In this document: piece by piece, positions 11,587-64,000 of the stretch
Layout: each line of letters starts with the position of its first letter
Numbering within the stretch: the stretch's first letter is position 1
NCBI GenBank assembly: GCA_013215285.1
Contig: JABSRD010000006.1
Location: forward strand, 1 to 64,000
Direction of reading: 5' to 3'
Source: Candidatus Nitrosopumilus sp.
GTDB taxonomy: Archaea; Thermoproteota; Nitrososphaeria; Nitrososphaerales; Nitrosopumilaceae
Length of the DNA: 64,000 bases
Notes under the pieces: model-generated
What the model saw: the letters and a program-made list of their open reading frames with translations, nothing else
What the model was told of the DNA's origin: nothing
Database searches by the model: none
Position numbers and translations under genes: made by a program

Positions 11587-11643
11587 GGTTCTGTGAAGTT
11601 ATCGAGGGATAACATGAAATACGGATCTTCTTCAAATTGAATT
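11587..11643 (+). repeat. Left terminal inverted repeat of transposon copy 1
   Basis: 57 bp, identical to the reverse complement of 13789-13845. Begins GGTTCTGTGAAGTTATCGAG. The transposase gene stop lies inside it. Confidence 0.95.
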
Positions 11644-12765
11644 TTCCCTGTAAAGACTAGCGTTTTGAATTATTGTTTTCCACTTGTTCTTACCATCAAC
11701 CTGTATTTTTGCCATCTCAGCTGGTGTCTTACCATTAATTCCACCGTGCTTCTTTGAGAAATTATAAAATGTTTGGAATCCCTCAAAGAGAGGACTGTCC
11801 ATCTTTTTTATTCCCCTGTATGAGACTTCCCTGTCTCTTATGGTTCCGTTTAGTCTCTCCATTCGATTGTTGTTCTTGTCGCCTTTCATGTGGATGTGTC
11901 TAATGTGTTCAGTATCTTTCCAAAGAAAGTTCTTTGCCTTGTAATTTTCTTTCCATGCCTTATGAAAGTTTGCAGCTCCATCAGAAATTAATGTAGTTGG
12001 TATTTTGTCTGCAATCATCATGGCTTCTCTAAACATGGGTGTAACGTCTTCTGTGCCTTTTGTGTTTGCCACATATTGAGTAATCATGAATCTGGTTTCA
12101 TGGTCAAGCATTGAATATTGTAGTTTTTGAACACCACTAATTTTCATAAATATCTCATCAGTTCGCCATGTTTCTGATACTCTAGGTACAATCCCCTTGA
12201 GATAATTATGTGTCATTTTAGAGTATTTTTTAACCCAGTCGTAAACTGCCCTGTATGATACATCTATTTCCTCTTGCTCAAAACAGTCTGCAATGTCTCT
12301 TACTGACATTCCCGAATAATACATTTGTAAGGCTCTAGTGATTAGGACTGGATTATATCTCATCTTTTCAAATCCAAAGTTTGATGAGAATTTCTTTTTA
12401 CAGTCCAAACATTCAAAGATTCTAACTTTACCGTTCTTGTTTTTTCTAAATCCATCTTTTCTCAATCTACCTGAATCACAATACTTGCATAGTTTAAGTT
12501 GAGAACGTTCCATAATTCTAAATGTGTTATTACGATAACATTTGTTTTTCTTGATAATTTCTAAAACTATCTTGATGTGTTTACAGTCTGCCTTTCTACA
12601 GTTATGATCTTTGCATTGGCATTTTAGACCATTACCTGTCTTTGAGACAATGTAATGATTATTTAGGTTTGTCTGTGATCTGACGGAAAAACTGTTTTGG
12701 TCAATTTGGGAGCAATGGCCTTTAGTTTCCATCATGAGTTTTGCTTTTCGTTTTCTTTGATTCAT
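11632..12765 (-). CDS. SWIM zinc-finger DDE transposase (copy 1, intact)
   Basis: 377 residues from the ATG at 12763-12765 (the longer frame to 12804 has no counterpart in other copies). Order: SWIM finger (CQCKDHNCRKADCKH, about 60-75), zinc ribbon CKYCDSG...CLDCKKKF, a helical part with QMYYSGMSVRDIAD (HTH-like), then a DDE nuclease domain with TWRTDEIFMK (first D), LISDGAANFHK (second D) and NRMERLNGTIRDRE (E). The core resembles IS6/IS240-type transposases, but the N-terminal SWIM finger and the long inverted repeats are not typical of IS6. It shares the layout of the transposases at 19837, 48069, 51850 and 63784. Confidence 0.88.
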   Translation of the reverse strand: MNQRKRKAKLMMETKGHCSQIDQNSFSVRSQTNLNNHYIVSKTGNGLKCQCKDHNCRKADCKHIKIVLEIIKKNKCYRNNTFRIMERSQLKLCKYCDSGRLRKDGFRKNKNGKVRIFECLDCKKKFSSNFGFEKMRYNPVLITRALQMYYSGMSVRDIADCFEQEEIDVSYRAVYDWVKKYSKMTHNYLKGIVPRVSETWRTDEIFMKISGVQKLQYSMLDHETRFMITQYVANTKGTEDVTPMFREAMMIADKIPTTLISDGAANFHKAWKENYKAKNFLWKDTEHIRHIHMKGDKNNNRMERLNGTIRDREVSYRGIKKMDSPLFEGFQTFYNFSKKHGGINGKTPAEMAKIQVDGKNKWKTIIQNASLYRENSI

Positions 12766-12849
12766 ACCAATATTATAATGGCAATATATTATAATGTTTA
12801 CCATTGATTTAATGGCAACAATTTTATTTATCTGATTTTGAATATTTGT

Positions 12850-13053
12850 ATGGGTTCACAAATAATACGACAAAGAAAAAACAAGGAGTATCTTTACTAT
12901 GCTTATTATGACAATAGAGTACGTAAGGAGATGTATTGTGGTTTAATATCTGATCCTAAATCAAAAAGAAAAGCTATTGAATTTGAAATTGAAGAATTAG
13001 AAAAATTACAAAACAATATTGCATGTAGATTAAAAATATTAAAGAAAAAATAA
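12850..13053 (+). CDS. Small charged protein divergent from transposase, transposon cargo
   Basis: 67 residues from ATG 12850 (an upstream in-frame ATG at 12838 is possible). Begins MGSQIIRQRKNKEYLYYAYY, then VRKEMYCGLI and a lysine/glutamate-rich helix. The N-terminal part looks like the short beta-strand units that precede phage integrases or bind DNA. It occupies the position, divergent from the transposase, that DNA-binding or zinc proteins occupy in the other copies. A regulatory role is inferred only. Confidence 0.6.
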   Translation: MGSQIIRQRKNKEYLYYAYYDNRVRKEMYCGLISDPKSKRKAIEFEIEELEKLQNNIACRLKILKKK

Positions 13054-13091
13054 ATTAAAAGTTTGATGGATCTAACTAAAGAAAACCCTAA

Positions 13092-13349
13092 TCATATAGA
13101 ATCGTAAAGCATGACAGTTAATTGTCCAGTAGAAATGTAAAACTGTAAACATTTTCTTGAACTTCTAAAATCAATCATATATTGAATAAAGTTAGGATGT
13201 AAATTTTGTTGATTCCAATCAGTACATAATATTTCTAATCCGTTGTGTAAAGATAACATTTTTTCAACAATTGAATCAACTATGCTTTGTTCACTGGAAT
13301 CTAACGATTCTAAATTATTAAAATAAGTATGTGCAGGAACTAGAATCAT
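13092..13349 (-). CDS. Small protein, toxin-like partner of an overlapping two-gene pair
   Basis: 85 residues, mixed alpha/beta, ending FYISTGQLTVMLYDSI. No family recognised. Its ATG overlaps the stop of the 42-residue gene upstream (ATGA), the layout of toxin-antitoxin pairs, with the antitoxin candidate first. It lies inside transposon copy 1 as cargo. Function not established. Confidence 0.55.
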   Translation of the reverse strand: MILVPAHTYFNNLESLDSSEQSIVDSIVEKMLSLHNGLEILCTDWNQQNLHPNFIQYMIDFRSSRKCLQFYISTGQLTVMLYDSI

Positions 13350-13474
13350 TTTTCTTTTCGTCTTTTTTGATATTCCTGAAATGAATTATATATGCAAGAA
13401 TCTATTTCTTTACTTTTGATTTTTTCTAATACCTCTTCACGAGACAATTTACTTAAATCAATTTCATCTGTCAT
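13346..13474 (-). CDS. Very small protein, antitoxin-like partner
   Basis: 42 residues from the ATG at 13472-13474: begins MTDEIDLSKLSREEVLEKIK and ends EYQKRRKEK. Acidic start, basic end, mostly helical, as in small antitoxins. Overlaps the 85-residue gene by four bases. Assigned as an antitoxin from size and layout alone. Confidence 0.5.
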   Translation of the reverse strand: MTDEIDLSKLSREEVLEKIKSKEIDSCIYNSFQEYQKRRKEK

Positions 13475-13788
13475 GTTACACTATAACAAAATAGTACATT
13501 TAAAGTATTTGAACGTTGATCCAATTAAAATGTGTAATATATTATGTAGATACACTCCACTACATAATGAATTTTTCTGTTTATACATTACACATTTGTT
13601 TCAATCCTTGTTATGGTGGATTCATTAACTTTGTATTTTAAATGGGGCCAAGTTTTTACTTGGGATATTCCATTTTCGGAATTTGTAAAAAACAAAATTA
13701 ATGCTTCAATGGGGCATCACATCAACGGAGTGCATCTTGTAGTGTATCATGTAATATCGTATAAAAATTAAACAATAAATTCATGCCT

Positions 13789-13845
13789 AATTCAATTTGA
13801 AGAAGATCCGTATTTCATGTTATCCCTCGATAACTTCACAGAACC
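13789..13845 (-). repeat. Right terminal inverted repeat of transposon copy 1
   Basis: 57 bp, reverse complement of 11587-11643 with no mismatch, so the copy is probably recent. Confidence 0.95.
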
Positions 13846-42204: not shown

Positions 42205-42211
42205 TAAAAAA

Positions 42212-42286
42212 TGGGCCCGATGTGATTCGAACACATGACCTTTCGATTATCAGTCGAACGCTCCAGCCAAGCTGAGCTACGAGCCC
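42212..42286 (-). tRNA. tRNA-Ile (GAT anticodon)
   Basis: Minus-strand cloverleaf: acceptor GGGCTCG with CGGGCCC, D arm GCTCAGCTTGGCTGGAGC, anticodon loop CTGATAA (GAT), T arm GTG-TTCGAAT-CAC within TGTGTTCGAATCACA. No intron. A tyrosine recombinase gene starts 88 bases from its 5-prime end, so the region may be an attachment site. Confidence 0.93.
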
Positions 42287-42374
42287 ACGAACAACACTCT
42301 AGGCTGGAGTCATTTAAGTTTAATTATTTACCGATTTTGGGAACTATTTTATTATATGCTATTATATTCAAAAC

Positions 42375-43559
42375 ATGGTGGATAGTAAAAAATGGCTTCT
42401 TTATGCTATAGATCAGAGTAAGAAGTCCACTGAATATAGGAATTTCTATATGCCTATGAAAAATAAATCGGGAACCGTCAAAACCTATGCTTACTCATTA
42501 AGTAGATTCATGGACTTTTTGGTAAGTGAGAAAAAACTACAAAACACAGAATCATTCAAAAAACTAATCTCATACAAACCAAAAATCATGGTAGAATTAA
42601 TCAAAAATTGGATATTCATATTATCTGAAGGTGATGATGATAGGTCCAAGATAACAAGTAGTGCCATCAAAACAATGCTTTTTGGAGTTATTGCATTTTT
42701 TGAAACAAATGAGTTTGAATGGAATCCAAAAAGAGTATTGAACTCAATACCTAGAGAGGATAGAATACTTGGAGGTAAGATACCAGCTACCAATAATGAT
42801 GTAGTAAATATGTTAAATTCCACAAATCTTATTTTAGAAAAATCACTAATTCATTTTATATCATCTACAGGAATAAGACCTGGTGCAGTGAGTGATCCAG
42901 TATTAAGAATGAAACATTTAGACAAGATGAAAAATGGTTCTTACTCTATTACAGTTTACGATGAGTCAAAAGAGGGATATTGGGCTTTTCTTACTCCAGA
43001 AGCTGCAAACACACTTGATAGATATTTTGAACAAAGAACACAAAAGGGTGAAAAATTAGATGATGAATCCCCAATATTTAGAAATAAAATCACAAATGAA
43101 ATAATACCATTATCATCATCAGCTGCAAGAAAAATCTGTTACAAACTTATTGATAAAGGAGGGATTAAGAGAATAAAATATGGTAACCGATATGATAAAG
43201 CAGTTGTTACAATGTTTCGTAAAAGGTTCAATACAATTCTAAAATTAAATAATGATGTAAACTCTAACATTGCAGAAAAACTAATGGCACATAAACGAGG
43301 ATTAGATGGTGTATATCTTCAACCAACAAAAGAAGAATGTTTTAGGGAATTTATAAAAGCCATTCCACAATTAACAGTTGATCCAACAGAACGACAAAAA
43401 ATAGAAATTGAAAATAAACAAAAAAAGATAGATGAGTTAGAAGAAAAGACTGCGACAATAGATGATCAGGAAAAAATGATTAGACAGTTACAAGAAGAAC
43501 AGAAACGTCAAGCTAAACTATTACGACTTATAGAAAAGTATCCAAAGATTATAAAGTGA
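42375..43559 (+). CDS. Tyrosine recombinase (integrase)
   Basis: 394 residues. N-terminal SAM-like domain (TVKTYAYSLSRFMDFLVSEK), then the catalytic domain: first Arg in SSTGIRPGAVSD (about 172), a Lys-bearing beta hairpin, MFRKRFNT (second Arg region), His in LMAHKRG, and nucleophile Tyr in LDGVYLQP. The last 60 residues form a charged coiled coil (KQKKIDELEEKTATIDDQEK). It belongs to the integrases of thaumarchaeal integrated elements and probably inserted the region 42375-46692 next to tRNA-Ile. Confidence 0.88.
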   Translation: MVDSKKWLLYAIDQSKKSTEYRNFYMPMKNKSGTVKTYAYSLSRFMDFLVSEKKLQNTESFKKLISYKPKIMVELIKNWIFILSEGDDDRSKITSSAIKTMLFGVIAFFETNEFEWNPKRVLNSIPREDRILGGKIPATNNDVVNMLNSTNLILEKSLIHFISSTGIRPGAVSDPVLRMKHLDKMKNGSYSITVYDESKEGYWAFLTPEAANTLDRYFEQRTQKGEKLDDESPIFRNKITNEIIPLSSSAARKICYKLIDKGGIKRIKYGNRYDKAVVTMFRKRFNTILKLNNDVNSNIAEKLMAHKRGLDGVYLQPTKEECFREFIKAIPQLTVDPTERQKIEIENKQKKIDELEEKTATIDDQEKMIRQLQEEQKRQAKLLRLIEKYPKIIK

Positions 43560-53970: not shown

Positions 53971-54462
53971 ATGTCAAAGAATAATTTTGTAGGTGCAACA
54001 GGAGCTTATTTTGTAGCTGGTGAACTATCGAAACTAGGATATATTGCATTACTCACAAATAGAAATACTGCTGGAATTGATATTATTGTTTCAAATCCTA
54101 AAACATACAAATCAACAAACATTCAGGTCAAGACTACTGAGAAAAATCCCTATTGGTTATTGAGTAAAAAAGATGAGGAAATACATGAAGATAATTTATT
54201 TTATGTTTTTGTAAAACTAGGTAGAGAGTTAGAATATCATAACATTCCAAATGCATCTGACATTAAGATTCATCACATAGATTGTACGGCATATACAGGT
54301 AGAGATCCTTTAGCCAAAAATTCAGATTGGCATACTGCATCAAACCTTCAAACTGCTACAAGTACAGCTCAGAGACTAGCTAGAGAACATTCCATGAAAT
54401 ATCGTGATTGTGAATGGTGCAAACCTTCATCACCCGAACTTAACACCCATCCGCCTAATTGA
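53971..54462 (+). CDS. PD-(D/E)xK nuclease-like protein
   Basis: 163 residues. GATGAYFVAGELSKLGYIAL (Glu in GEL), then NTAGIDIIVSNPKTYKSTNI and QVKTTEKNPYWLL give E...D...QVK, the core of restriction-type nucleases. The C-terminal YVFVKLGRELEYHNIPNASD fits the same group of small PDDEXK proteins. The neighbouring acidic protein and flanking transposon ends suggest a mobile defence or toxin pair. Confidence 0.68.
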   Translation: MSKNNFVGATGAYFVAGELSKLGYIALLTNRNTAGIDIIVSNPKTYKSTNIQVKTTEKNPYWLLSKKDEEIHEDNLFYVFVKLGRELEYHNIPNASDIKIHHIDCTAYTGRDPLAKNSDWHTASNLQTATSTAQRLAREHSMKYRDCEWCKPSSPELNTHPPN

Positions 54463-54621: not shown

Positions 54622-55677
54622 TTGATACTTGTGAATAACCTTAACTCTGTTCTGGTATTGTCTCTTTTTACAGTATTAGTGATGGGAGTAATGTTACCAT
54701 CATATGCTGATTATTTATCACCAAAAAAGCAGCTAGAATCAGGTATATTACCTGAGGATGTAATTTGTCGAGAAAGTCGTGTACTTGTAATTAGAGATAA
54801 TAATAATCCTGCTTGTGTACATGAATCCACTGCAAATAAGATGAACTGGAATATCATTGCAACTGAATTTGTACAAAAAGAGATTGTTTCAAACAATGCA
54901 GTTCAAATTGATGATAAAGTAGAAAACATGAAAGATACAAATGGTTTGATAGAACAACATGAATCCATAACAGATAACAAGACAAACAATAATGATGAAC
55001 AAGAACAAGAATTCATAGTATTAGATCTTGGCTCTGATGTAGAGTATGTAGATGATGGCAGAGAAATACATGTTGCATCACAAAGAAGACCGGCTCCTAT
55101 GAATATCTATGAAGATATTGTTGATTCTCAGGAAGACAATAACATAAATAGTAAAGGCTTGTACAGAGTGCCAGCAGGTTTTGCACATGAAAAATATTCT
55201 GTTAATGAAGGTATTGGATTTTATCCACAAGACTGGATGCCAACATATGTTCCAGACGGTTACAAATTGTTATACATTACTAACAATCATTATGTAGATG
55301 GTAGCGGTAAAGTCAGCTTAAACATTCACTTTGTGCCAAACACATTCCGGTTAACAAATCAAACAACAGATTATGATATTCAAAAATCCCATGGATTTAC
55401 AGTTTATGTTATAAAAAAGACTACTCCGCTTGATGAAATTGAAGATCAAATTGAAAGTTACAAAGAATTGAGTGAAGGAAGTTTTGAATATGTTGGAAGA
55501 TTCTTGGATGTGCAAAGAGATGGTAAGATTGTATGGGCATCAGAGACACAAGATCGTTTGAATCCTTATCAGGCCGGTTATTCTTTTCATCCTGATGAAT
55601 ACACATCTGTTGCTGTAATATCTAACTACCTTACTTTAGAAGAGATACAACCAATCTTTAACAATGTCATGAATTGA
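54622..55677 (+). CDS. Secreted protein of ammonia-oxidising archaea, unknown function
   Basis: 351 residues from TTG 54622 (GTG 54631 is an alternative). Signal peptide ending near MLPSYADYLS. Then SGILPEDVICRESRVLVIRD and NPACVHESTANKM, a cysteine motif I recall from many nitrososphaerotal secreted proteins. An acidic linker and a C-terminal domain (GIGFYPQDWMPTYVPDGYKL) follow. Its stop overlaps the start of the next large gene (TTGA), so the two are co-translated. Confidence 0.65.
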   Translation: MILVNNLNSVLVLSLFTVLVMGVMLPSYADYLSPKKQLESGILPEDVICRESRVLVIRDNNNPACVHESTANKMNWNIIATEFVQKEIVSNNAVQIDDKVENMKDTNGLIEQHESITDNKTNNNDEQEQEFIVLDLGSDVEYVDDGREIHVASQRRPAPMNIYEDIVDSQEDNNINSKGLYRVPAGFAHEKYSVNEGIGFYPQDWMPTYVPDGYKLLYITNNHYVDGSGKVSLNIHFVPNTFRLTNQTTDYDIQKSHGFTVYVIKKTTPLDEIEDQIESYKELSEGSFEYVGRFLDVQRDGKIVWASETQDRLNPYQAGYSFHPDEYTSVAVISNYLTLEEIQPIFNNVMN

Positions 55678-58600
55678 AATATGTTTTAATTATTTTTGTA
55701 CTTGTTGCAATTGGTGTTTTTAGTTATACTCAGGATGCATACGCACAACTTGCATGTAATGATCCTCACTGTTATGCATTAGAACGACATAGACAGAACT
55801 TTGTTGATGGACTAGAATATGATTTGGCGGCACCTGATTTATGGATTGATAGAAATACATGTACGGATATTGCAGTATCTACTGGTTGGTTAATTTCAGC
55901 TAGCAATTCAGAATGGGCAGAGGCAGGAGTGACAAAAGGATATCTACAAAATCTTGATGGAACAACTACATGCATTACACAACTTAGTACGTACTATGCA
56001 TATAATACTCTAATCGATGATCGTGGTCAATATCGTTATACAGAAATCATAGTCCCAAACGGAAGAGTAGATCCAGGAGACAACATCGATGTTAAAATTC
56101 AAAAAAATGACCAGAACCAAATTTTAGCTTATATAAACACGCCAGACAAACCAGACGAATTTGCATCTGCCAGAATAACACTTCAATCTGACAACAACTA
56201 TTACGCGGACTTTGGAATAGAGGGAACAGTATCTGGCCCAGACGAATACTCTTCAATCCCGATGAGCAAGTATACCAATACCAAAATTCTACGTAATAAT
56301 TCTTGGAGTAACTTACCTAGTACTGCCACCATATCAATTCCGATCACAGGCGAAGGGTATCTTGCCAAGAAATGTCCAAGCAATTCGTTTGTGGCAGGAA
56401 CTGTGACAGAACTTGACTGCAACAATGTGGCTGTAAGAAACCAAATCCCAAGTGTCTCCACCCAGATAATCAACCTGAACACAAATTCACCTTACACAAT
56501 TAGTCTGGATGGTACAGATACAGACAAGGATTATCTTACATACAATCTTGTGGAACTGCCAACCAAGGGAACCCTAAACTACAACAATAAGGGGCAAAAG
56601 ATCCCAAACACTGACGGGTACTCCTCCCAACTAATTTACACTCCAGCAAGTTCCACTCCAGAGTCTGACACAATCCGATACTCTGTAACTGATGGAAGAG
56701 ATGCACATACAAGAGAAGGCCTCATATCAATTGTCGGCCCTGCTCCTGCACCTACAATCCCTGATGCAGTAGATGATTTTGCATATTCACTTTCTGGTAT
56801 GACACTGCACTTTACGTGGAGCCATCCTGATAATGGCGGTTCTGCCATAACGTTTTACAGAGTGGAACGATCATCAGACACTGCAATATGGAATCTGCAC
56901 AACACATACAGCGAGACTGCAACAAGCTTTGACTACACAAGACACCAAGGATATGATCAATACTTTAGGATATTTACAAACAACGCACACGGTGCCTCTG
57001 CCGTATCAAACATACTGCATGTACACATTGCAGATACTACTCCGCCAACAATTACAATACAGAGTCCAACCAGCGGTACCACTGTTGTGACCTCTGATGT
57101 CAAGACAAGTGGATACATCTACGAATCGCAAAGCTCTGGCATCAAAAACATCAAGATAAAAGTTGACGGTGCAGACAGCAGCGATCCCATACTAACTAGT
57201 GTTTTATCACAAGACACCAACATAAAATTTGAATCAATACTGACAGGTATGTCCAACGGCGCACGTACAATTACAGTCTATGCAGATAATGGTGACTCGT
57301 ACACTGCAAGCAACAGCGTCACCATTACAATTGCAGTACCTACATCAAAGACACTTGATTCCTTTTCAGATGACTTTGAATCAACAATGTCAAAGTGGAC
57401 TGTGACAACTGAGGATGACGAGTACTGGAGCATAAGAAACTCTCCAATAGTGCAGGTGCCTGGATCATCATCTGCAAACAAGGTGGCAGGTACTGAGGAC
57501 TGTGATAACATATGCACCATGAGCATGATTGACAATGTTGATCTCTCCAAGATGATATCACCCAAACTTAGTTTTTATCGGTTTGTGGCAACAGGAGCTG
57601 ATGTCTCTGCAAAAGAGGGGATCTTAGCGTACGTATCTGAGAATGATGGTAGCACATGGTCTGTTCTTGAGAGGTTTACTGCCGATGAGTCAGACGATGA
57701 CGGAGCATGGCACAAGGAGGAATATGATCTGAGCAGTTATAGTACCAGTACAAAATTCAAGCTAAAGTTTGAGGCAATCTCCAGTAGTAACAGCGAGGAT
57801 ACCGAACTTGATGATATTATCATTTATGACGCAAGTGCAGACACCACACCGCCAACAATCACTGTACCTGCAAACATTGCAAAAGAAGCAACAGGAACGC
57901 TTACAAAACTCACCATACAAAACGCTACTGCAACTGATGCCTCTACACCAATCATTATTAATCACAATGGTACCATTCCAATGAATAATGGATTTCCACT
58001 TGGAGTTACAATAATCAACTGGACTGCAACAGATTCATCGGGAAATACTGCAACAGATTATCAGACCATTACCCTGCAGGATACAACTCCTCCCGTATTA
58101 ACATTAAACGGTGAATCATTAATTACCATTCCATACAACTCTGAATACATTGATGCAAGAGCAACTGCAACAGATTTGGTGGATGGCAACCTTACTGAAT
58201 CCATTGTTATTACAACCCAAGTAGATACAAAAATTCCCAATACATACACAATAACGTATGACGTAGTAGATAGTTATGGAAATCAGGCAATTTCTATATC
58301 TAGAATAGTTACAGTATCATCTATTCCAATTGATGATATTAATGATGCAAGAGTTGATTATTCTGCAAGTACACTAACAGTTACTGAAGGTGAATCATTA
58401 ATCATAAAGTTACAGTATGATGCACCGCTACAAAATAACAAATGGCAGTGCTTTGAGGTATTGGATGAGAACGGTATCAACGGGCGAAACAACGGTGATA
58501 TTAAATTCTGGAATGACAAAACACTGTTCTCATATGATGGGGAACAGTGGGGTGGTGATAGATACATCGACAATGTATTTTATGGAAAATGCAAGTATTT

Positions 58601-59159
58601 GACAGGTGATCAATTATGGATAAAGATTCCAACCATTCTAGACTATGACAGTACAGAGGGAAATGAGAAATATTACATCCATCTGACAAAGTCCAACACA
58701 AACCCTCAGTTTGAATTACCCATTGAGCTTATCATACTAGAGTCAGGACGCTCAAACCCTGTTGCAACAGTTGATACTGATTCTAGTACACTAACAGTTA
58801 CTGAAGGAGAACCATTTATTGTAAAGTTCCAGTATGATTACACTTTGCCTAAAACCGCATGGGCAAGCTTTGATGTTATTGATTCAGATGGCAATAAAAT
58901 AAGAAGCAATACTGATATCAAACTGTGGAATGATAAAAGTCTCTTCTCATATGATGGAGTACAGTGGGGAGGAACAAGATATCATGACAAGGTGTTTTAT
59001 GGTTCGTACAAATATCTCAAAGGTGATTCTATATGGGTAAAAATTCCAACCTTTACTGATGATGCAATAGATGGTGATAAAACCTACAGACTGCAAGTTA
59101 CAGTTAGGGATGGTGATGTGATCTTCCCTGAAGTTGACCTTACAATACGGGACAAATAA
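55674..59159 (+). CDS. Large secreted multidomain surface protein
   Basis: 1161 residues from a TTG overlapping the previous stop. Signal peptide (about 1-25, ending DAYAQ). About 25-260: beta domain with PHCYALERHRQNFVDGLEYD. Then a cadherin-like unit (DGTDTDKDYLTYNLVELPTK), an FN3 unit (about 365-455), an Ig-like unit, a MAM-like lectin/jelly-roll unit (about 560-720, SFSDDFESTMSKWTVTTEDD), a HYR unit (PPTITVPANIAKEATG), an Ig-like unit, and two C-terminal repeats of about 115 residues, each opening STLTVTEGE and holding W-NDK-LFSYDG-QWGG. Built for adhesion or binding outside the cell. Confidence 0.78.
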   Translation: MKYVLIIFVLVAIGVFSYTQDAYAQLACNDPHCYALERHRQNFVDGLEYDLAAPDLWIDRNTCTDIAVSTGWLISASNSEWAEAGVTKGYLQNLDGTTTCITQLSTYYAYNTLIDDRGQYRYTEIIVPNGRVDPGDNIDVKIQKNDQNQILAYINTPDKPDEFASARITLQSDNNYYADFGIEGTVSGPDEYSSIPMSKYTNTKILRNNSWSNLPSTATISIPITGEGYLAKKCPSNSFVAGTVTELDCNNVAVRNQIPSVSTQIINLNTNSPYTISLDGTDTDKDYLTYNLVELPTKGTLNYNNKGQKIPNTDGYSSQLIYTPASSTPESDTIRYSVTDGRDAHTREGLISIVGPAPAPTIPDAVDDFAYSLSGMTLHFTWSHPDNGGSAITFYRVERSSDTAIWNLHNTYSETATSFDYTRHQGYDQYFRIFTNNAHGASAVSNILHVHIADTTPPTITIQSPTSGTTVVTSDVKTSGYIYESQSSGIKNIKIKVDGADSSDPILTSVLSQDTNIKFESILTGMSNGARTITVYADNGDSYTASNSVTITIAVPTSKTLDSFSDDFESTMSKWTVTTEDDEYWSIRNSPIVQVPGSSSANKVAGTEDCDNICTMSMIDNVDLSKMISPKLSFYRFVATGADVSAKEGILAYVSENDGSTWSVLERFTADESDDDGAWHKEEYDLSSYSTSTKFKLKFEAISSSNSEDTELDDIIIYDASADTTPPTITVPANIAKEATGTLTKLTIQNATATDASTPIIINHNGTIPMNNGFPLGVTIINWTATDSSGNTATDYQTITLQDTTPPVLTLNGESLITIPYNSEYIDARATATDLVDGNLTESIVITTQVDTKIPNTYTITYDVVDSYGNQAISISRIVTVSSIPIDDINDARVDYSASTLTVTEGESLIIKLQYDAPLQNNKWQCFEVLDENGINGRNNGDIKFWNDKTLFSYDGEQWGGDRYIDNVFYGKCKYLTGDQLWIKIPTILDYDSTEGNEKYYIHLTKSNTNPQFELPIELIILESGRSNPVATVDTDSSTLTVTEGEPFIVKFQYDYTLPKTAWASFDVIDSDGNKIRSNTDIKLWNDKSLFSYDGVQWGGTRYHDKVFYGSYKYLKGDSIWVKIPTFTDDAIDGDKTYRLQVTVRDGDVIFPEVDLTIRDK

Positions 59160-59182
59160 TTAGACATCACACATTTGTTTTA

Positions 59183-59233
59183 GGTTCTGTCAAGTTACAG
59201 TGACCTAATTTCTAGTGTAAAGTTTGGTGATCT
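59183..59233 (+). repeat. Left terminal inverted repeat of transposon copy 6
   Basis: Begins GGTTCTGTCAAGTTACAG and contains TTTCTAGTGTAAAGT, both as in copy 2. Partner not visible. Confidence 0.68.
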
Positions 59234-59305
59234 AAAATGACTAATTTATCAATTAACCCATAATTAGAATTTGTTGTAATTCCATGATTCATAAAGCATT
59301 TGAAA

Positions 59306-59354
59306 TCAAATGGAATGAGAGGTTGGATTTTGTTTGTAATTACGCAACTCATCT
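59306..59354. repeat. 49-bp repeat, also at 15231-15279
   Basis: Six mismatches to the copy beside the IS66 remnant. Here no IS66 gene is next to it. Confidence 0.65.
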
Positions 59355-59559
59355 ATTGTATATGCTTGATAATTTTTTGTGCTAATCCTTTAAAATCTTC
59401 ATCACATTTTGCTACACTATCATTTTGAACTCCAACAATTTCACTACCACTTAATTCAAAAATCGGTTTTTTTACTTCTTGAGCTTTTGGTGCTAAACTA
59501 TGATAACTCTTAAAATCACCCAATTTATGAGAGCCATTATTCAATAAAACAAAATACAC
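59353..59559 (-). CDS. Small unknown protein in transposon copy 6
   Basis: 68 residues from a GTG start: YFVLLNNGSHKLGDFKSYHS, then EVKKPIFELSGSEIVGVQND. No family recognised. It could be a fragment, as a 49-bp repeat abuts its end. Confidence 0.4.
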   Translation of the reverse strand: MYFVLLNNGSHKLGDFKSYHSLAPKAQEVKKPIFELSGSEIVGVQNDSVAKCDEDFKGLAQKIIKHIQ

Positions 59560-59632
59560 TGTTAAATCTCAGGAGCTTTTCAATAGACCGTTAAATTAGA
59601 GACTTTTTGTGTTGAGTAGGTGCTTGAAGTAA

Positions 59633-61810
59633 TCAATCAAAACTCAAGGATTTCCAGTCAGAGAAATCTTTCTCATCATATTCATATTCCTCATTATCAT
59701 TGTACAACCATTCGCCTTTTTGAAATACTGTAATTCCGCCAAAAACTTTCTTGGATTTATTATCTCTAAGATACTTTGATAATGCTTCTGCCTTTGGTTT
59801 GGCAATTTTAGCTGTAAATCCAGCTTTTGTATCATACAGTCCTATTCTTCCATCTTTCATGAAAACAACAAAATCAACGTAGAACGCATGAGGTTCACCA
59901 TTATCAGGATCAACATATTTTATGGCAAAGTATTTCTTGTCATTTACCTCATTTTTGAACCACCATTTTACCTCATTTTCTTCTTCAAGGAAATCCATAA
60001 ACCTGATTTCATTTTCCACATCTGTTTTGATATATGATGGTAACATTATGCATTTTTTGTAATTTTTTTCCTTGTAGATTTTTGTGTATTCTGTACCTTC
60101 TGGTATGTTCCATTTTGGAATATTTTCAATCTCACGTTCAATCTTGTCTACAATATCTCGTGTAAACTGGTCTTTTGCCACATTGATTGTCTTGATAAAA
60201 CAATCCCTATTTTTTGGAGAAAGTGTTATGGTTTCCATATCCATCAGATCAGTGATTTTTGTATTATCTTTAAAAAATTGATGGATGCAACGTTTGATAA
60301 CTGCATGAGAATGCTCTTTTGCAAACGGTTCTGTCATATCTCTTGCAAACACATCAAATCTATTTTGCAAGTCCATAGGACTTAATTTTATAGATAATAA
60401 GCCACCTTGAAGATTTTGTTCCTTATCTAGTTGTATGATTTCTGCATCTGTTATTATTTTATTTTTAAGTTTGGTAACATCTAATGATATTTTATCTATA
60501 ACGTGTTGTTTATTAGCAACTGTGGAAAATATTTTACGAAATTCTGCATTAAGACGTGTTTTTTCATGCTGTCGTTTTATGTATATGGATTTCAAGTCAA
60601 CTGGATCATTAAGATCATTCCTTCTTATTGATTCATAGATTGTAAGGTAGTCTTTTGTTACATCTTCCGCAATTTGTACTTCTTTGATATTTGTATAGAC
60701 ATAGGCACGATTTAGTTCATCATTGTCATAATGTTTTATTTCAGGCATTCTAATTATTCTTCCAATAGTTTGTATTGAAAATTCAAACTTTTTCCATTCC
60801 CTGAATAACACCAAAATTGATGAACGTGGACAATCCCAACCAACCGTTATTGCTTGTTTAAAGATTAACACTTCTACTTCATTAGTATTCTTTTCAATAT
60901 TTTCAAGATTTATTTTATTGTCTTTATCTGAAAGATAAATTGCAAGCTTTCCATTTTCTGTGTTTATACTGAATTTTGAATCCAATAACCTGATTATCTG
61001 GTCTTTTCTGTCTAACATTCCTCTGCGTGCATCTGGTAGTTGGATTAGAACGAGTGGGTTCACATCTGAGTTTTCATTTTCATAATTATTTTTTAGTTGT
61101 TGTCTTTTTTCAAGTGCAGTCTTTATGATTAACACGTCTGTTGTACTGTTTATAATATTACTTAATTTATGATTTAATCTGATGGATTTTTTCACCATTT
61201 CTTCCTCTTTGACTTCTTGAAGATCAACACTTTGTACATAATCAGTATTGGAGATTTTTGGTGTCGCTGAAACCTCGATTGTTACTTTGGGATTTATTTT
61301 TTGGATTATCTCTTTTGATTTTTCAGAGCTTGCTGTGTGATGACTCTCATCAATGATTAGTATGATCTCTCTACCTTCATCTTTTGTATTTTCAATAACT
61401 TTTGATAGATTAAACTCATTTTCATTCTCTCGTATGTAGATATTTTTTTCCTGATTTATGCTCTGCCAGTTAAAAAATAATATTTCCTTATCATGTATTT
61501 GTTTATCCTGTAAATCCTCAAAAGATGAACAACCCACAGTTTGTAGATCTTCATAATATTTTTCTAATTTTTCTTTACTTTGATCATTTAGTTTATGAAC
61601 AGTAATCCAAATAAATGCAATCTCTTTACCATCAGGTCTATTATCTACAAGTCTTTTGATTAGTTCTGCCATCATTATGGTCTTACCTGAACCAGTTGGA
61701 GACTTGAAAACACAGATTTTATTTGATTCTAAATTGAAAAATTCATCTACTTTTTGTTTTAACTCACTTACGTGCTTTTCTTGATAGTTTCTTAGTTTGA
61801 ACATACGCAA
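59633..61810 (-). CDS. res: Type III restriction enzyme, Res subunit
   Basis: 725 residues. Superfamily 2 helicase: Walker A FKSPTGSGKTIMMAELI at about 37-53, Walker B IDESHHTAS, motif III VSATPK, motif VI QTIGRIIRMPE. The C-terminal nuclease domain has HAFYVDFVVFMKDGRIGLYD followed by TKAG, the PD...D-x-K type core. It cleaves DNA with the Mod subunit at unmethylated sites after ATP-driven movement. Its start overlaps the mod end by 47 bases. Confidence 0.87.
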   Translation of the reverse strand: MRMFKLRNYQEKHVSELKQKVDEFFNLESNKICVFKSPTGSGKTIMMAELIKRLVDNRPDGKEIAFIWITVHKLNDQSKEKLEKYYEDLQTVGCSSFEDLQDKQIHDKEILFFNWQSINQEKNIYIRENENEFNLSKVIENTKDEGREIILIIDESHHTASSEKSKEIIQKINPKVTIEVSATPKISNTDYVQSVDLQEVKEEEMVKKSIRLNHKLSNIINSTTDVLIIKTALEKRQQLKNNYENENSDVNPLVLIQLPDARRGMLDRKDQIIRLLDSKFSINTENGKLAIYLSDKDNKINLENIEKNTNEVEVLIFKQAITVGWDCPRSSILVLFREWKKFEFSIQTIGRIIRMPEIKHYDNDELNRAYVYTNIKEVQIAEDVTKDYLTIYESIRRNDLNDPVDLKSIYIKRQHEKTRLNAEFRKIFSTVANKQHVIDKISLDVTKLKNKIITDAEIIQLDKEQNLQGGLLSIKLSPMDLQNRFDVFARDMTEPFAKEHSHAVIKRCIHQFFKDNTKITDLMDMETITLSPKNRDCFIKTINVAKDQFTRDIVDKIEREIENIPKWNIPEGTEYTKIYKEKNYKKCIMLPSYIKTDVENEIRFMDFLEEENEVKWWFKNEVNDKKYFAIKYVDPDNGEPHAFYVDFVVFMKDGRIGLYDTKAGFTAKIAKPKAEALSKYLRDNKSKKVFGGITVFQKGEWLYNDNEEYEYDEKDFSDWKSLSFD

Positions 61811-63515
61811 ATATCCTCTTGTATACGTTTAGTATGGCAGAAGGTATTGGTTTTAAAGTTACCAGTTGATCGACCTCTATAAATTCCTCATCATCTATTT
61901 CATCAGTCAATGAAAATACGTATGTATTGATTTTTTTGTTTAGTTTTAGAATTTCTTTTTTAAATGGTTCTATCCCATCATAATAATAGATGATTCCAAG
62001 ATAATAATCACTATGATTTTTGAAGATCTTGAATTGATTACCTTCTTTAACCAGTTCAAAACAATCTTCTTTTAAACATAACATTTCAGTTGATTGTTCT
62101 ACCATTGTTTTTTTGTTCTGATCGGTTGGTTCAAAATTTATAAAATACGTTTTAAAATATTTAAGATTTCCACCTAGACCCTCAATCTTTTTACCTTTGG
62201 CATTTTTATAACCTTTAATTACTTTTTTTAGTCGTGGATAACATACATCTGTACAAATGTTGTTTTCATTATTTGTACAAAGTATGAATCTTCTAGTTCC
62301 TCCATCTTCTTTGTTTAATTCTAAAACAGCATGACCTGTAGTACCTGAGCCTGCAAAAAAATCCAATACTGTTGAATTATTTTTTGATATGAGTTTTAAA
62401 ATATCATATGTAGTCCATAATGATTTTGGGTATGGAAATGTATCTTTTTTTCTTAGAATATTTCGCAACAACATAATTCCATGACTTGAAGCATCATAAC
62501 GAGGATCATACCATACAGACCTAGGTTTCTTACTGGTTATGTTGAGTAGTCTACGTTTTTTAAAAATTTTATATTCATTTTTGATATGTCGTACTATCAA
62601 TTCAGTATCTTTCTTTTTCAAAAATGTGTCTTTTCCCCACTTCCAAACTTTTTCATCACCTGAATTATTTATCGGAAGTAATTTGACAGAACCTTTAGTT
62701 TGTATCGCATCAAGTTTGTTGGTTTTAGGATTATAATAGATCGGATAAAACATTTTTGGTCTTGTATGACGATCAGAGTTATTTCCACCTCGCATATATG
62801 TCACAAGTAAGTAATTTGAAATTTCATCTTTCATATTATATGTATTAATTTCTTTATTTGTAAGATCAAAATAACCAACGTCAGAATTATTTGGGTTTAT
62901 TGAATAGATCAACATATACTCATGCATTGTAGCAAAATGTGTATCGTCGTTTCTTCCTCTTGGATTGTGGACAACGGTAATTGTACTTAAACGGTTTTTC
63001 TCATCAAATATTTCATCCATTAATAATCTTAGTGTGTGTACTTCGTAATCATCAATAGAAACAATAATTTTACCTGATTTTGTAAGAAGTGTTTTTGCTA
63101 ACTTCAATCTCTTATTCATGAATGAAAGCCATTTACTATGACGAAAACCATCATCTTTATCAACAAAATTATTGTTGTATTTCCATGTCTTATTTCCTGT
63201 ATTATAGGGCGGATCAATGTAAATTACATCAATTTTATTTTTATGTGTATAACTCAAAACTGAAAGAGTATGATAATTATCGCCTTCAATTAAAATATTA
63301 TTTGGTTTTGATATATCCTCAATTCCATTTTTTGTAACATCTTTTAGAACAGGCAGTTTTTCCTGTATTTCTTCTTCAAAAACCTCTTTGGTTCTTTCCT
63401 CATCCCAGATTATACCGTATTTTTTTCTTTTTTCTAATTTTTTGATCTCTTTAATTAATTCAGTTTGTGACCAACTGGAATAATCAATTTTTTTTGGTTT
63501 ACCATTAACTACCAT
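61764..63515 (-). CDS. mod: Type III DNA adenine methyltransferase, Mod subunit
   Basis: 583 residues. DPPYNTGNKTW (motif IV) at about 113 precedes DFFAGSGTTGHAVLEL (motif I) at about 390, the beta-class order of type III Mod proteins. The segment between is the target-recognition domain (about 190-350), which sets the recognised sequence and cannot be predicted here. Gives both methylation and site recognition to the R-M complex. Six bases from the RHH-type gene upstream. Confidence 0.88.
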   Translation of the reverse strand: MVVNGKPKKIDYSSWSQTELIKEIKKLEKRKKYGIIWDEERTKEVFEEEIQEKLPVLKDVTKNGIEDISKPNNILIEGDNYHTLSVLSYTHKNKIDVIYIDPPYNTGNKTWKYNNNFVDKDDGFRHSKWLSFMNKRLKLAKTLLTKSGKIIVSIDDYEVHTLRLLMDEIFDEKNRLSTITVVHNPRGRNDDTHFATMHEYMLIYSINPNNSDVGYFDLTNKEINTYNMKDEISNYLLVTYMRGGNNSDRHTRPKMFYPIYYNPKTNKLDAIQTKGSVKLLPINNSGDEKVWKWGKDTFLKKKDTELIVRHIKNEYKIFKKRRLLNITSKKPRSVWYDPRYDASSHGIMLLRNILRKKDTFPYPKSLWTTYDILKLISKNNSTVLDFFAGSGTTGHAVLELNKEDGGTRRFILCTNNENNICTDVCYPRLKKVIKGYKNAKGKKIEGLGGNLKYFKTYFINFEPTDQNKKTMVEQSTEMLCLKEDCFELVKEGNQFKIFKNHSDYYLGIIYYYDGIEPFKKEILKLNKKINTYVFSLTDEIDDEEFIEVDQLVTLKPIPSAILNVYKRIFAYVQTKKLSRKARK

Positions 63516-63521
63516 GAATAA

Positions 63522-63695
63522 TCACTTTGATTTTTTATACTCCTTTTTGATTGGATTATTTTTCATGTAATCGTGCATGGCAAATTCTAATTCAGTATTG
63601 GCATTTCTGGTATTGCCATGCTTTTTTAATGCATATCCCTGAAAATCTTCCCAAATATTTTCATCCAAAGTCAGACTAGTTTTTTTCCGTGTCAT
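63522..63695 (-). CDS. Ribbon-helix-helix-type small regulator
   Basis: 57 residues from ATG 63695: MTRKKTSLTLDENIWEDFQG, AMHDYMKNNPIKKEYKK. The start (K-T-S-L-T-L-D-E-N-I-W) is a typical RHH strand-helix. First gene of the R-M operon and divergent from the transposase, so it may control both. Confidence 0.68.
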   Translation of the reverse strand: MTRKKTSLTLDENIWEDFQGYALKKHGNTRNANTELEFAMHDYMKNNPIKKEYKKSK

Positions 63696-63699
63696 TGTT

Positions 63700-63783
63700 C
63701 ATATATAAGGGTACCTGTATATAAAGATACCTATATGGTTATGAATAGATAATCTTTTATAGATATACAGTTATCTATACAAT
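63700..63783. promoter_or_regulatory. Operator-like repeats between R-M operon and transposase
   Basis: GGGTACC near 63709 and GATACCTATAT near 63727, then the inverted pair ATAGATAA (63745-63752) and TTATCTAT (63771-63778) just before the transposase. Confidence 0.5.
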
Positions 63784-64000
63784 ATAAATAGAAAACAGAA
63801 AGCAACCCAAATCTTCTCAAAGACAAATTCGATTAGAAAAATTACAAACAATCACTATGTTGTTGAATCTCAAAATTCAAACCAAAAATATAATGTACAA
63901 AAATTAAAGGATACTAATGTATGGACTTGTGAATGTGGAGATTTTCATTACAGATTAAGAACCCAAGACAACAAACACTGTAAACACATTCTAAGCTGTA
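63784..64000 (+). CDS. SWIM-family transposase (copy 6), N-terminal part only
   Basis: Frame reads NRKQKATQIFSKTNSIRKIT, HYVVESQNSNQKYNVQ, and SWIM finger CECGDFHYRL...CKH at the edge. It aligns to the starts of the intact copies (MNQRKRKAK), but the codon in the start position is ATA, not ATG, and no in-frame ATG follows within the window. Either a rare start or a lost start. Continues beyond the window. Confidence 0.75.
   Translation, partial: MNRKQKATQIFSKTNSIRKITNNHYVVESQNSNQKYNVQKLKDTNVWTCECGDFHYRLRTQDNKHCKHILSC

What the first reader, a model, noticed from the sequence alone, without database searches (positions are those of the whole stretch)
59183..64000. Type III restriction-modification system carried as transposon cargo
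Seen: left transposon end, then res and mod (overlapping), an RHH-type gene, operator-like repeats and a divergent SWIM-family transposase start, the same order as in copies 2 and 3. Inference: the whole R-M system can move with this transposase, a direct vehicle for defence-gene transfer. The regulator may delay Res until Mod has protected the new host.
Basis: partly seen in the sequence, partly recalled or inferred. Interest (0 to 1): 0.8.

Follow-up and report, generated by a model that had tools for sequence, protein, structure and literature searches.

The report
Archaeal transposon carrying restriction-modification genes
In an ammonia-oxidising archaeon, a DNA-cutting defence system sits inside a small transposon, and nearly every other transposon of the same lineage carries a different, unrelated defence system in the same slot, so this looks like a family of vehicles for immunity genes.

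Summary
The core claim holds, but the end was misassigned. Mod and res (overlapping by 47 bp) lie in a transposon that runs off the window. On the continuing contig (C22) are the transposase (IS6-like DDE with SWIM and zinc-ribbon motifs) and the right end. The element's own ends are 74-bp inverted repeats (98.6%) at 59,557-59,629 and C22:65,353-65,426 (5.87 kb). The GGTTCTGTCAAG end at 59,183 belongs to another element type that brackets it. Both lie in a 23.3-kb island beside a tRNA-Ile gene; four relatives checked base by base have the empty site.

The larger finding: the transposase falls in one clade (support 100/100) in the order. Seven members have both ends (74-103-bp repeats); four of these have 8-bp target duplications. 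Of nine members with readable cargo, seven carry R-M genes of unrelated kinds (Type III; HaeIII-type; D12+HNH; four MTase+S), one a ShosTA-like pair and one unknown genes. Two transposase remnants also adjoin R-M genes. Related transposons outside the clade: 2 of 30.

This copy has no target duplication and ATA where its nearest relative has an ATG start, so it may now be immobile. Timed regulation by the RHH-like protein is not supported.

The parts
59557..59629 (+). left terminal inverted repeat of the R-M transposon (TA)CACTGTTAAATCTCAGG...; partner at C22:65,353-65,426, beyond the window
   Evidence: 98.6% identical 74-bp inverted repeat; same tip and iteron layout as close relatives
59633..61810 (-). 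res, Type III restriction subunit, 725 aa; Walker A TGSGKT, DESHH, C-terminal VDF...YDTK
   Evidence: Pfam ResIII 2.4e-26; PADLOC REase_III 1.2e-18; motif positions
61764..63515 (-). mod, Type III adenine methyltransferase, 583 aa; DPPY at residue 101, FAGSG at residue 387
   Evidence: PADLOC MTase_III 3.5e-81; PDB Mbo45V 8e-60, EcoP15I 7e-26
63522..63695 (-). 57-aa ORF, RHH-like by inspection, upstream of mod
   Evidence: ORF; no library match, so identity is a guess
63702..63733 (.). imperfect tandem 16-bp repeat in the divergent intergenic region, possible operator
   Evidence: 81% repeat; weak
63784..64000 (+). start of the IS6-like SWIM/zinc-ribbon DDE transposase; continues to C22:65,118. 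Codon 63,784-63,786 is ATA where the C19 copy has ATG
59179..59234 (+). left end of the outer, GGTTCTG-type element that brackets the R-M transposon; partner C22:65,561-65,616. Not part of the R-M transposon
   Evidence: 56-bp, 91% inverted repeat; GGTTCTG ends with 8-bp duplications in other clades
59353..59559 (-). ORF fragment of the outer element, whose reading runs into the insertion point at 59,557
   Evidence: ORF coordinates against the inner repeat start
42314..42325 (.). left copy of TTAAGTTTAATT that flanks the 23.3-kb island; right copy at C22:65,650-65,661
   Evidence: empty-site comparison with G159, G115, G129, G095
42211..42287 (-). tRNA-Ile (gat) beside the island's left junction
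42375..43559 (+). tyrosine-recombinase-like protein (TGIRPG, LMAHKRG...Y by eye), first gene of the island
   Evidence: sequence inspection only; no Pfam, PHROGs or PDB support

Best explanation
A 5.87-kb unit transposon carries a Type III R-M operon as cargo. Its layout is: left TIR, res and mod and a small regulator-like gene transcribed leftward, the divergent IS6-like transposase, a short ORF, right TIR. It belongs to a transposase clade of ammonia-oxidising archaea (Nitrososphaerales) whose cargo slot holds R-M or other defence genes in nearly every readable copy, with the cargo replaced far faster than the transposase diverges. Most likely mechanism: the transposase binds the tip and two iterons in each long TIR and inserts the whole unit with an 8-bp target duplication, so the transposon supplies mobility and the R-M genes supply protection and perhaps post-segregational stabilisation. 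Shown: structure, target duplications in four relatives, clade, cargo diversity, and the empty site for the enclosing island. Inferred: DNA binding by the iterons, transposition, R-M activity, benefit. This particular copy sits inside an older element in a 23.3-kb island and may no longer move by itself.
For: Inner 74-bp TIRs resemble those of relatives. 8-bp duplications TTTGATAG (C19), CAAAATAC (G179), ACAAAATG (G188a) and ATACTGGC (G356). Transposase: DDE_Tnp_IS240 8.7e-14, IS6 model 1.5e-30, with invariant D/D/E and Cys/His residues. Cargo of relatives: HaeIII REase 1.3e-86 + D12 MTase (C19); double D12 + HNH (G121); N6-MTase + S (G012, G188a, G188b, G203); ShosA 5e-52 + PsyrT/ShosT (G356). 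Clade support 100/100; 7/9 against 2/30, Fisher p=8e-5, not corrected for relatedness. Cargo turnover: transposases 92% identical (G188a, G203) carry MTases only 25% identical; transposases 78-83% identical carry Type III, HaeIII-type or D12+HNH systems. The Type III operon also lies beside an N-terminal fragment of this transposase in another species (G121:C60).
Against: No target duplication at this copy; start codon ATA. No transposition or restriction data. Both ends are missing for G121:C83 and the right end for G203 is cut by the contig. One clade member (G179) carries genes of unknown function. In G203 the R-M genes run in the same direction as the transposase. The Res is short (725 aa) and has no sequence match among solved structures.
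Confidence: 0.83

Rival explanations
1. One reading: the unit is bounded by the GGTTCTGTCAAG repeats (59,179-C22:65,616), and that pair is what moves the R-M genes.
For: A real 56-bp, 91% inverted-repeat pair encloses everything.
Against: GGTTCTG ends go with other transposase clades; the R-M transposase's relatives all use (T/G/C)ACACTG ends. The inner pair is longer and more alike, and the outer element's ORF is cut at the inner boundary. No target duplication at the outer pair.
Confidence: 0.07
2. Bystander: R-M genes and IS elements gather in the same hypervariable islands, so their proximity needs no transposon carriage.
For: The window copy does lie in a 23.3-kb island full of IS remnants. 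R-M genes are common in thaumarchaeal integrated elements (PMC6563490).
Against: The R-M genes lie between matched TIRs, in four relatives with 8-bp duplications outside the TIRs (three carry known defence genes); the association is with one transposase clade.
Confidence: 0.06
3. This copy is a fixed former transposon, kept because losing the R-M operon kills the cell (addiction), with no present mobility.
For: ATA at the start position, no target duplication, nested in another element. The G121:C83 copy also has a stop two codons after ATG.
Against: The transposase frame is otherwise intact and the TIRs are 98.6% identical, which suggests that it was active not long ago.
Confidence: 0.4

Closest known systems
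IS6 family insertion sequences (IS26, IS240; review PMC7986276)
   Same: DDE domain (IS240/IS6 models), 8-bp target duplications, CACTGTT in the tip as in IS26 (the latter from memory)
   Different: IS6 elements are about 0.8 kb with 15-20-bp ends and GG tips, and the review names one member with a passenger gene; these are 4.3-7.7 kb with 74-103-bp iteron-bearing ends, a SWIM motif, a C-terminal extension and multi-gene cargo. IS6 model score is below the curated cut-off (106 of 125).
Tn7-like transposons with defence cargo (PMC8649781)
   Same: Unit transposon whose commonest defence cargo is R-M; several binding sites per end
   Different: Unrelated single transposase; no TnsABCDE. That study found no Tn7-like transposase in archaea.
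IS-linked movement of PaeR7I R-M (PMC3031569)
   Same: R-M genes moved by a transposase
   Different: There an E. coli IS acted on a plasmid-borne R-M system; here the R-M genes are internal cargo between the transposon's own ends.
Thaumarchaeal integrated elements and IS (PMC6563490)
   Same: Same hosts; R-M genes in integrated elements; IS6 listed
   Different: That survey describes IS-like transposons as 1-2 genes and reports passenger-carrying composite transposons as not detected in archaea.
Type III R-M systems (EcoP15I, Mbo45V)
   Same: mod-res operon, DPPY and FxGxG motifs, variable target-recognition region
   Different: Shorter Res; transposon-borne

Membership tests
Type III restriction-modification | Adjacent mod and res; Mod is a DPPY-type N6 methyltransferase related to known Type III Mod | tested here: met
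Type III restriction-modification | Res with SF2 helicase and C-terminal PD-(D/E)XK nuclease | tested here: inconclusive
   Helicase clear; nuclease motif by eye only; no PDB sequence match
Type III restriction-modification | Methylation and ATP-dependent cleavage at paired sites | not testable with these tools
   needs biochemistry or long-read methylation data
IS6 family | DDE domain of IS240/IS6 type | tested here: met
   Pfam 52.3 bits, cut-off 27
IS6 family | NCBIfam IS6 equivalog cut-off | tested here: not met
   106.4 bits, cut-off 125; hence IS6-like, not filed as IS6
IS6 family | 8-bp target duplication | tested here: met
   Four relatives; absent at the window copy
IS6 family | Short 15-20-bp ends with GG tips, about 800 bp, no passenger genes as a rule | tested here: not met
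   74-103-bp ends, 4.3-7.7 kb, cargo
IS6-type compound transposon (two flanking IS copies) | Two full IS copies around the cargo | tested here: not met
   One transposase gene between simple TIRs
Tn7-like transposon | TnsB/TnsC-type transposition genes | tested here: not met
   None among ORFs of the element
Integrative element at a tRNA gene (enclosing island) | Direct-repeat junctions and empty site in relatives | tested here: met
   12-bp TTAAGTTTAATT; empty in G159, G115, G129, G095
Integrative element at a tRNA gene (enclosing island) | Integrase gene | tested here: inconclusive
   Motifs by eye only; HMM searches empty

The most novel reading that the evidence does not exclude
A transposon lineage specialised as an immunity-gene carrier: one SWIM/zinc-ribbon IS6-like transposase with iteron ends and a cargo slot in which R-M systems of all kinds, and other defence genes, are exchanged, while sister lineages carry mostly other small genes. 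Unidentified cargo in such elements (for example the HTH + 444-aa pair in G179 and the HTH + 415-aa pair in G356) would then be candidates for undescribed archaeal defence systems.
Probability: 0.6. Interest if true: 0.72.

Novelty: new variant of a known kind. Interest (0 to 1): 0.62.

Why it matters
R-M systems are known to spread horizontally, but in archaea the vehicle is rarely identified; a 2019 survey of thaumarchaeal mobile DNA reported passenger-carrying composite transposons as not detected in archaea (PMC6563490). Here the vehicle has defined ends, target duplications and a transposase marker. That makes the spread of defence genes among abundant ammonia oxidisers traceable, and gives a simple search rule (this transposase clade plus its TIR) for finding new archaeal defence genes by guilt by cargo.

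Tried and rejected
(2) Outer GGTTCTG repeat as the element end: rejected after comparison with relatives. (3) Target duplication for the window copy: none, allowing shifts of up to 4 bp. (4) Empty site for the inner transposon alone, or for the C19 copy: not found; C19's left flank is shared by relatives but its right flank is not. (5) Transposase in phages or IMG/VR: no match; plasmids only distant IS6-like matches under 30% identity among the rows listed. (6) genome-contig scan: close clade only in seven records, one of them an irrelevant distant bacterial match. (7) RHH gene as a conserved regulator: rejected. (8) Literature for SWIM-domain transposases or for such transposons in Thaumarchaeota: nothing in the held library; subscription journals are not covered. 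(9) Integrase identity by HMM or PDB: no support. (10) Solved-structure relatives of the transposase: none by sequence.

Full report
What is there. In the window, res (59,633-61,810) and mod (61,764-63,515) overlap by 47 bp on the minus strand, followed by a 57-aa ORF and a divergent transposase start. HMMs identify Res (ResIII 2.4e-26) and Mod (Type III MTase 3.5e-81), and Mod aligns with solved Type III Mod proteins. The window is part of a 209-kb contig (C22) of a 1.66-Mb genome; named close relatives of the transposase are Nitrosopumilus and other Thaumarchaeota MAGs. Reading on, the transposase frame runs to C22:65,118, then a 72-aa ORF, then the right end.

Which end is the end. Two nested inverted-repeat pairs enclose the genes. 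The inner one (59,557-59,629 / C22:65,353-65,426; 74 bp, 98.6%) starts CACTGTTAAATCTCAGG. Close relatives of this transposase (51-83% identical) have ends that start (T/G/C)ACACTGTT... or (T/C)ACACTGG..., the same kind as the inner pair. GGTTCTG ends occur with other transposase clades, for instance copy 2 in the window with its 8-bp duplication. An ORF fragment of the outer element is cut at the inner boundary. So the R-M transposon is the inner unit, 5,870 bp, and it lies inside an older element. The ends carry a tip and one or two further TGTT-type iterons, most often at positions 35/56 or 44/65.

Target duplications and the island. C19 (TTTGATAG), G179 (CAAAATAC), G188a (ACAAAATG) and G356 (ATACTGGC) have 8-bp duplications next to their TIRs; the window copy, G012 and G188b do not. 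At a larger scale, relatives G159, G115, G129 and G095 lack everything between window 42,326 and C22:65,649: the sequence passes straight from the tRNA-Ile side through TTAAGTTTAATT to the redoxin gene, and that 12-mer is present at both junctions in our genome. Hence the R-M transposon sits in a 23.3-kb island. Its first gene looks like a tyrosine recombinase by motif, without HMM support.

The transposase. It has an IS240/IS6-type DDE domain, an N-terminal CxC...CxH (SWIM) motif, a CxxC...CxxC zinc ribbon, and invariant D207, D273 and E308 in the alignment. It misses the NCBIfam IS6 cut-off, so I call it IS6-like. In the window copy the codon where C19 has ATG is ATA, and no other usual start precedes the core; the G121:C83 copy has a stop two codons after ATG. 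Both may be inactive.

Cargo of relatives. Of 250 family genomes 76 have some transposase relative, but only a small clade is close. In the same slot as res-mod the clade carries: C19, D12 MTase + HaeIII-family REase; G121:C83, double D12 MTase + HNH protein; G012, G188a, G188b and G203, N6-MTase + specificity subunit; G356 (another family of the order), a ShosTA-like pair; G179, HTH + two unknown proteins. N-terminal transposase remnants lie next to a Type III operon in G121:C60 (Res 79% and Mod 54% identical to ours, the Mod difference being concentrated in its middle, as expected of the target-recognition region) and next to an MTase + MvaI/BcnI REase in G173. Second defence-like genes lie downstream of the transposase in G121:C83 (PDC-S18) and G188b (CAP12-type TIR).

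Control. I delimited 24 elements of other clades by their TIRs and scanned 88 cargo ORFs; two carry R-M genes, and six further elements from other families of the order were added to the tree. The clade is supported 100/100. R-M cargo: 7 of 9 inside, 2 of 30 outside (p=8e-5 without correction for relatedness; the cargo of the six added elements was not scanned as fully). The label needs 4 changes on the tree against 8.3 for shuffled labels, 0 of 500 shuffles as low. The R-M kinds are unrelated, so this is not one inherited system: transposases 92% identical (G188a, G203) carry MTases 25% identical. Conversely the D12+HNH system of G121:C83 (85% and 68% identical) recurs in an element with a distant transposase (L096), so cargo also crosses between transposon lineages.

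How it most likely works. The unit moves by its transposase acting at the long TIRs; R-M genes protect the host and may make loss of the element costly. This is inference. The regulator hypothesis is not supported: the gene between R-M and transposase is RHH-like here, a zinc ribbon in G121:C60 and G188b, AbrB-like in G121:C83, HTH in G179 and G356.

Known or new. R-M as transposon cargo is known in bacteria (Tn7-like, PMC8649781; IS-linked movement, PMC3031569). IS6 members with passenger genes were limited to one example in the 2021 review (PMC7986276), and the 2019 thaumarchaeal survey reported passenger-carrying composite transposons as not detected in archaea (PMC6563490). I therefore file this as a new variant of a known kind.

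Limits. Many genomes are MAGs; G121:C83 and G203 lack one or both ends; the clade sample is small; no function was tested.

Noticed in passing
window 42,314 - C22:65,661 (L003:8650-8661): 23.3-kb island beside tRNA-Ile, flanked by TTAAGTTTAATT, absent in relatives; holds at least three IS6-like elements or remnants and a large Ig-domain surface protein (55,674-59,159).
   Followed up: partly
L127:2055-9184 (G356): Element of the same clade with 8-bp duplication carrying a ShosA/ShosT-like pair plus an HTH + 415-aa pair of unknown function.
   Followed up: partly
L045:8832-14709 (G179): Clade member whose cargo (166-aa HTH, 444 aa, 274 aa, 179 aa) matches no Pfam, PADLOC or PHROGs family beyond the HTH; candidate unknown defence system.
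   Followed up: partly
L045:6475-8823 (G179): Unit with 155-bp 99% inverted repeats and the same CAKAATAC-type 8-bp duplication (CAAAATAC) but no transposase, holding an aldo/keto-reductase-like and an epimerase-like gene; looks like a non-autonomous element with metabolic cargo.
   Followed up: no
L047:8322-8879 (G188b): A TATA-binding-protein paralogue (Pfam TBP 2.2e-31) inside an R-M-carrying element; a similar TBP gene lies near the G203 R-M genes (L048:4419-4958).
   Followed up: no
L078:10974-11786; L095:6295-7269: Proteasome-subunit-like proteins as cargo of IS6-like transposons outside the clade (three of 88 cargo ORFs match Pfam Proteasome).
   Followed up: no
L096:7641-10680 and L041:5896-8923: The same D12+HNH R-M system (85%/68% identical) is carried by two distantly related transposases, so cargo crosses between transposon lineages.
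   Followed up: partly
window 11,587-13,845: Copy 2 has 57-bp perfect ends and the 8-bp duplication AATAAAAG; relatives G115, G137 and G175 lack it at this point (empty site).
   Followed up: partly
L047:670-14714 (G188): Two R-M transposons of this clade lie head to tail, nearly abutting, in one contig.
   Followed up: no
C22:65,148-65,366 (L003:8148-8366) and window 53,971-54,462: The 72-aa ORF after the transposase is 53% identical to the C-terminal part of a 163-aa protein elsewhere in the island.
   Followed up: no
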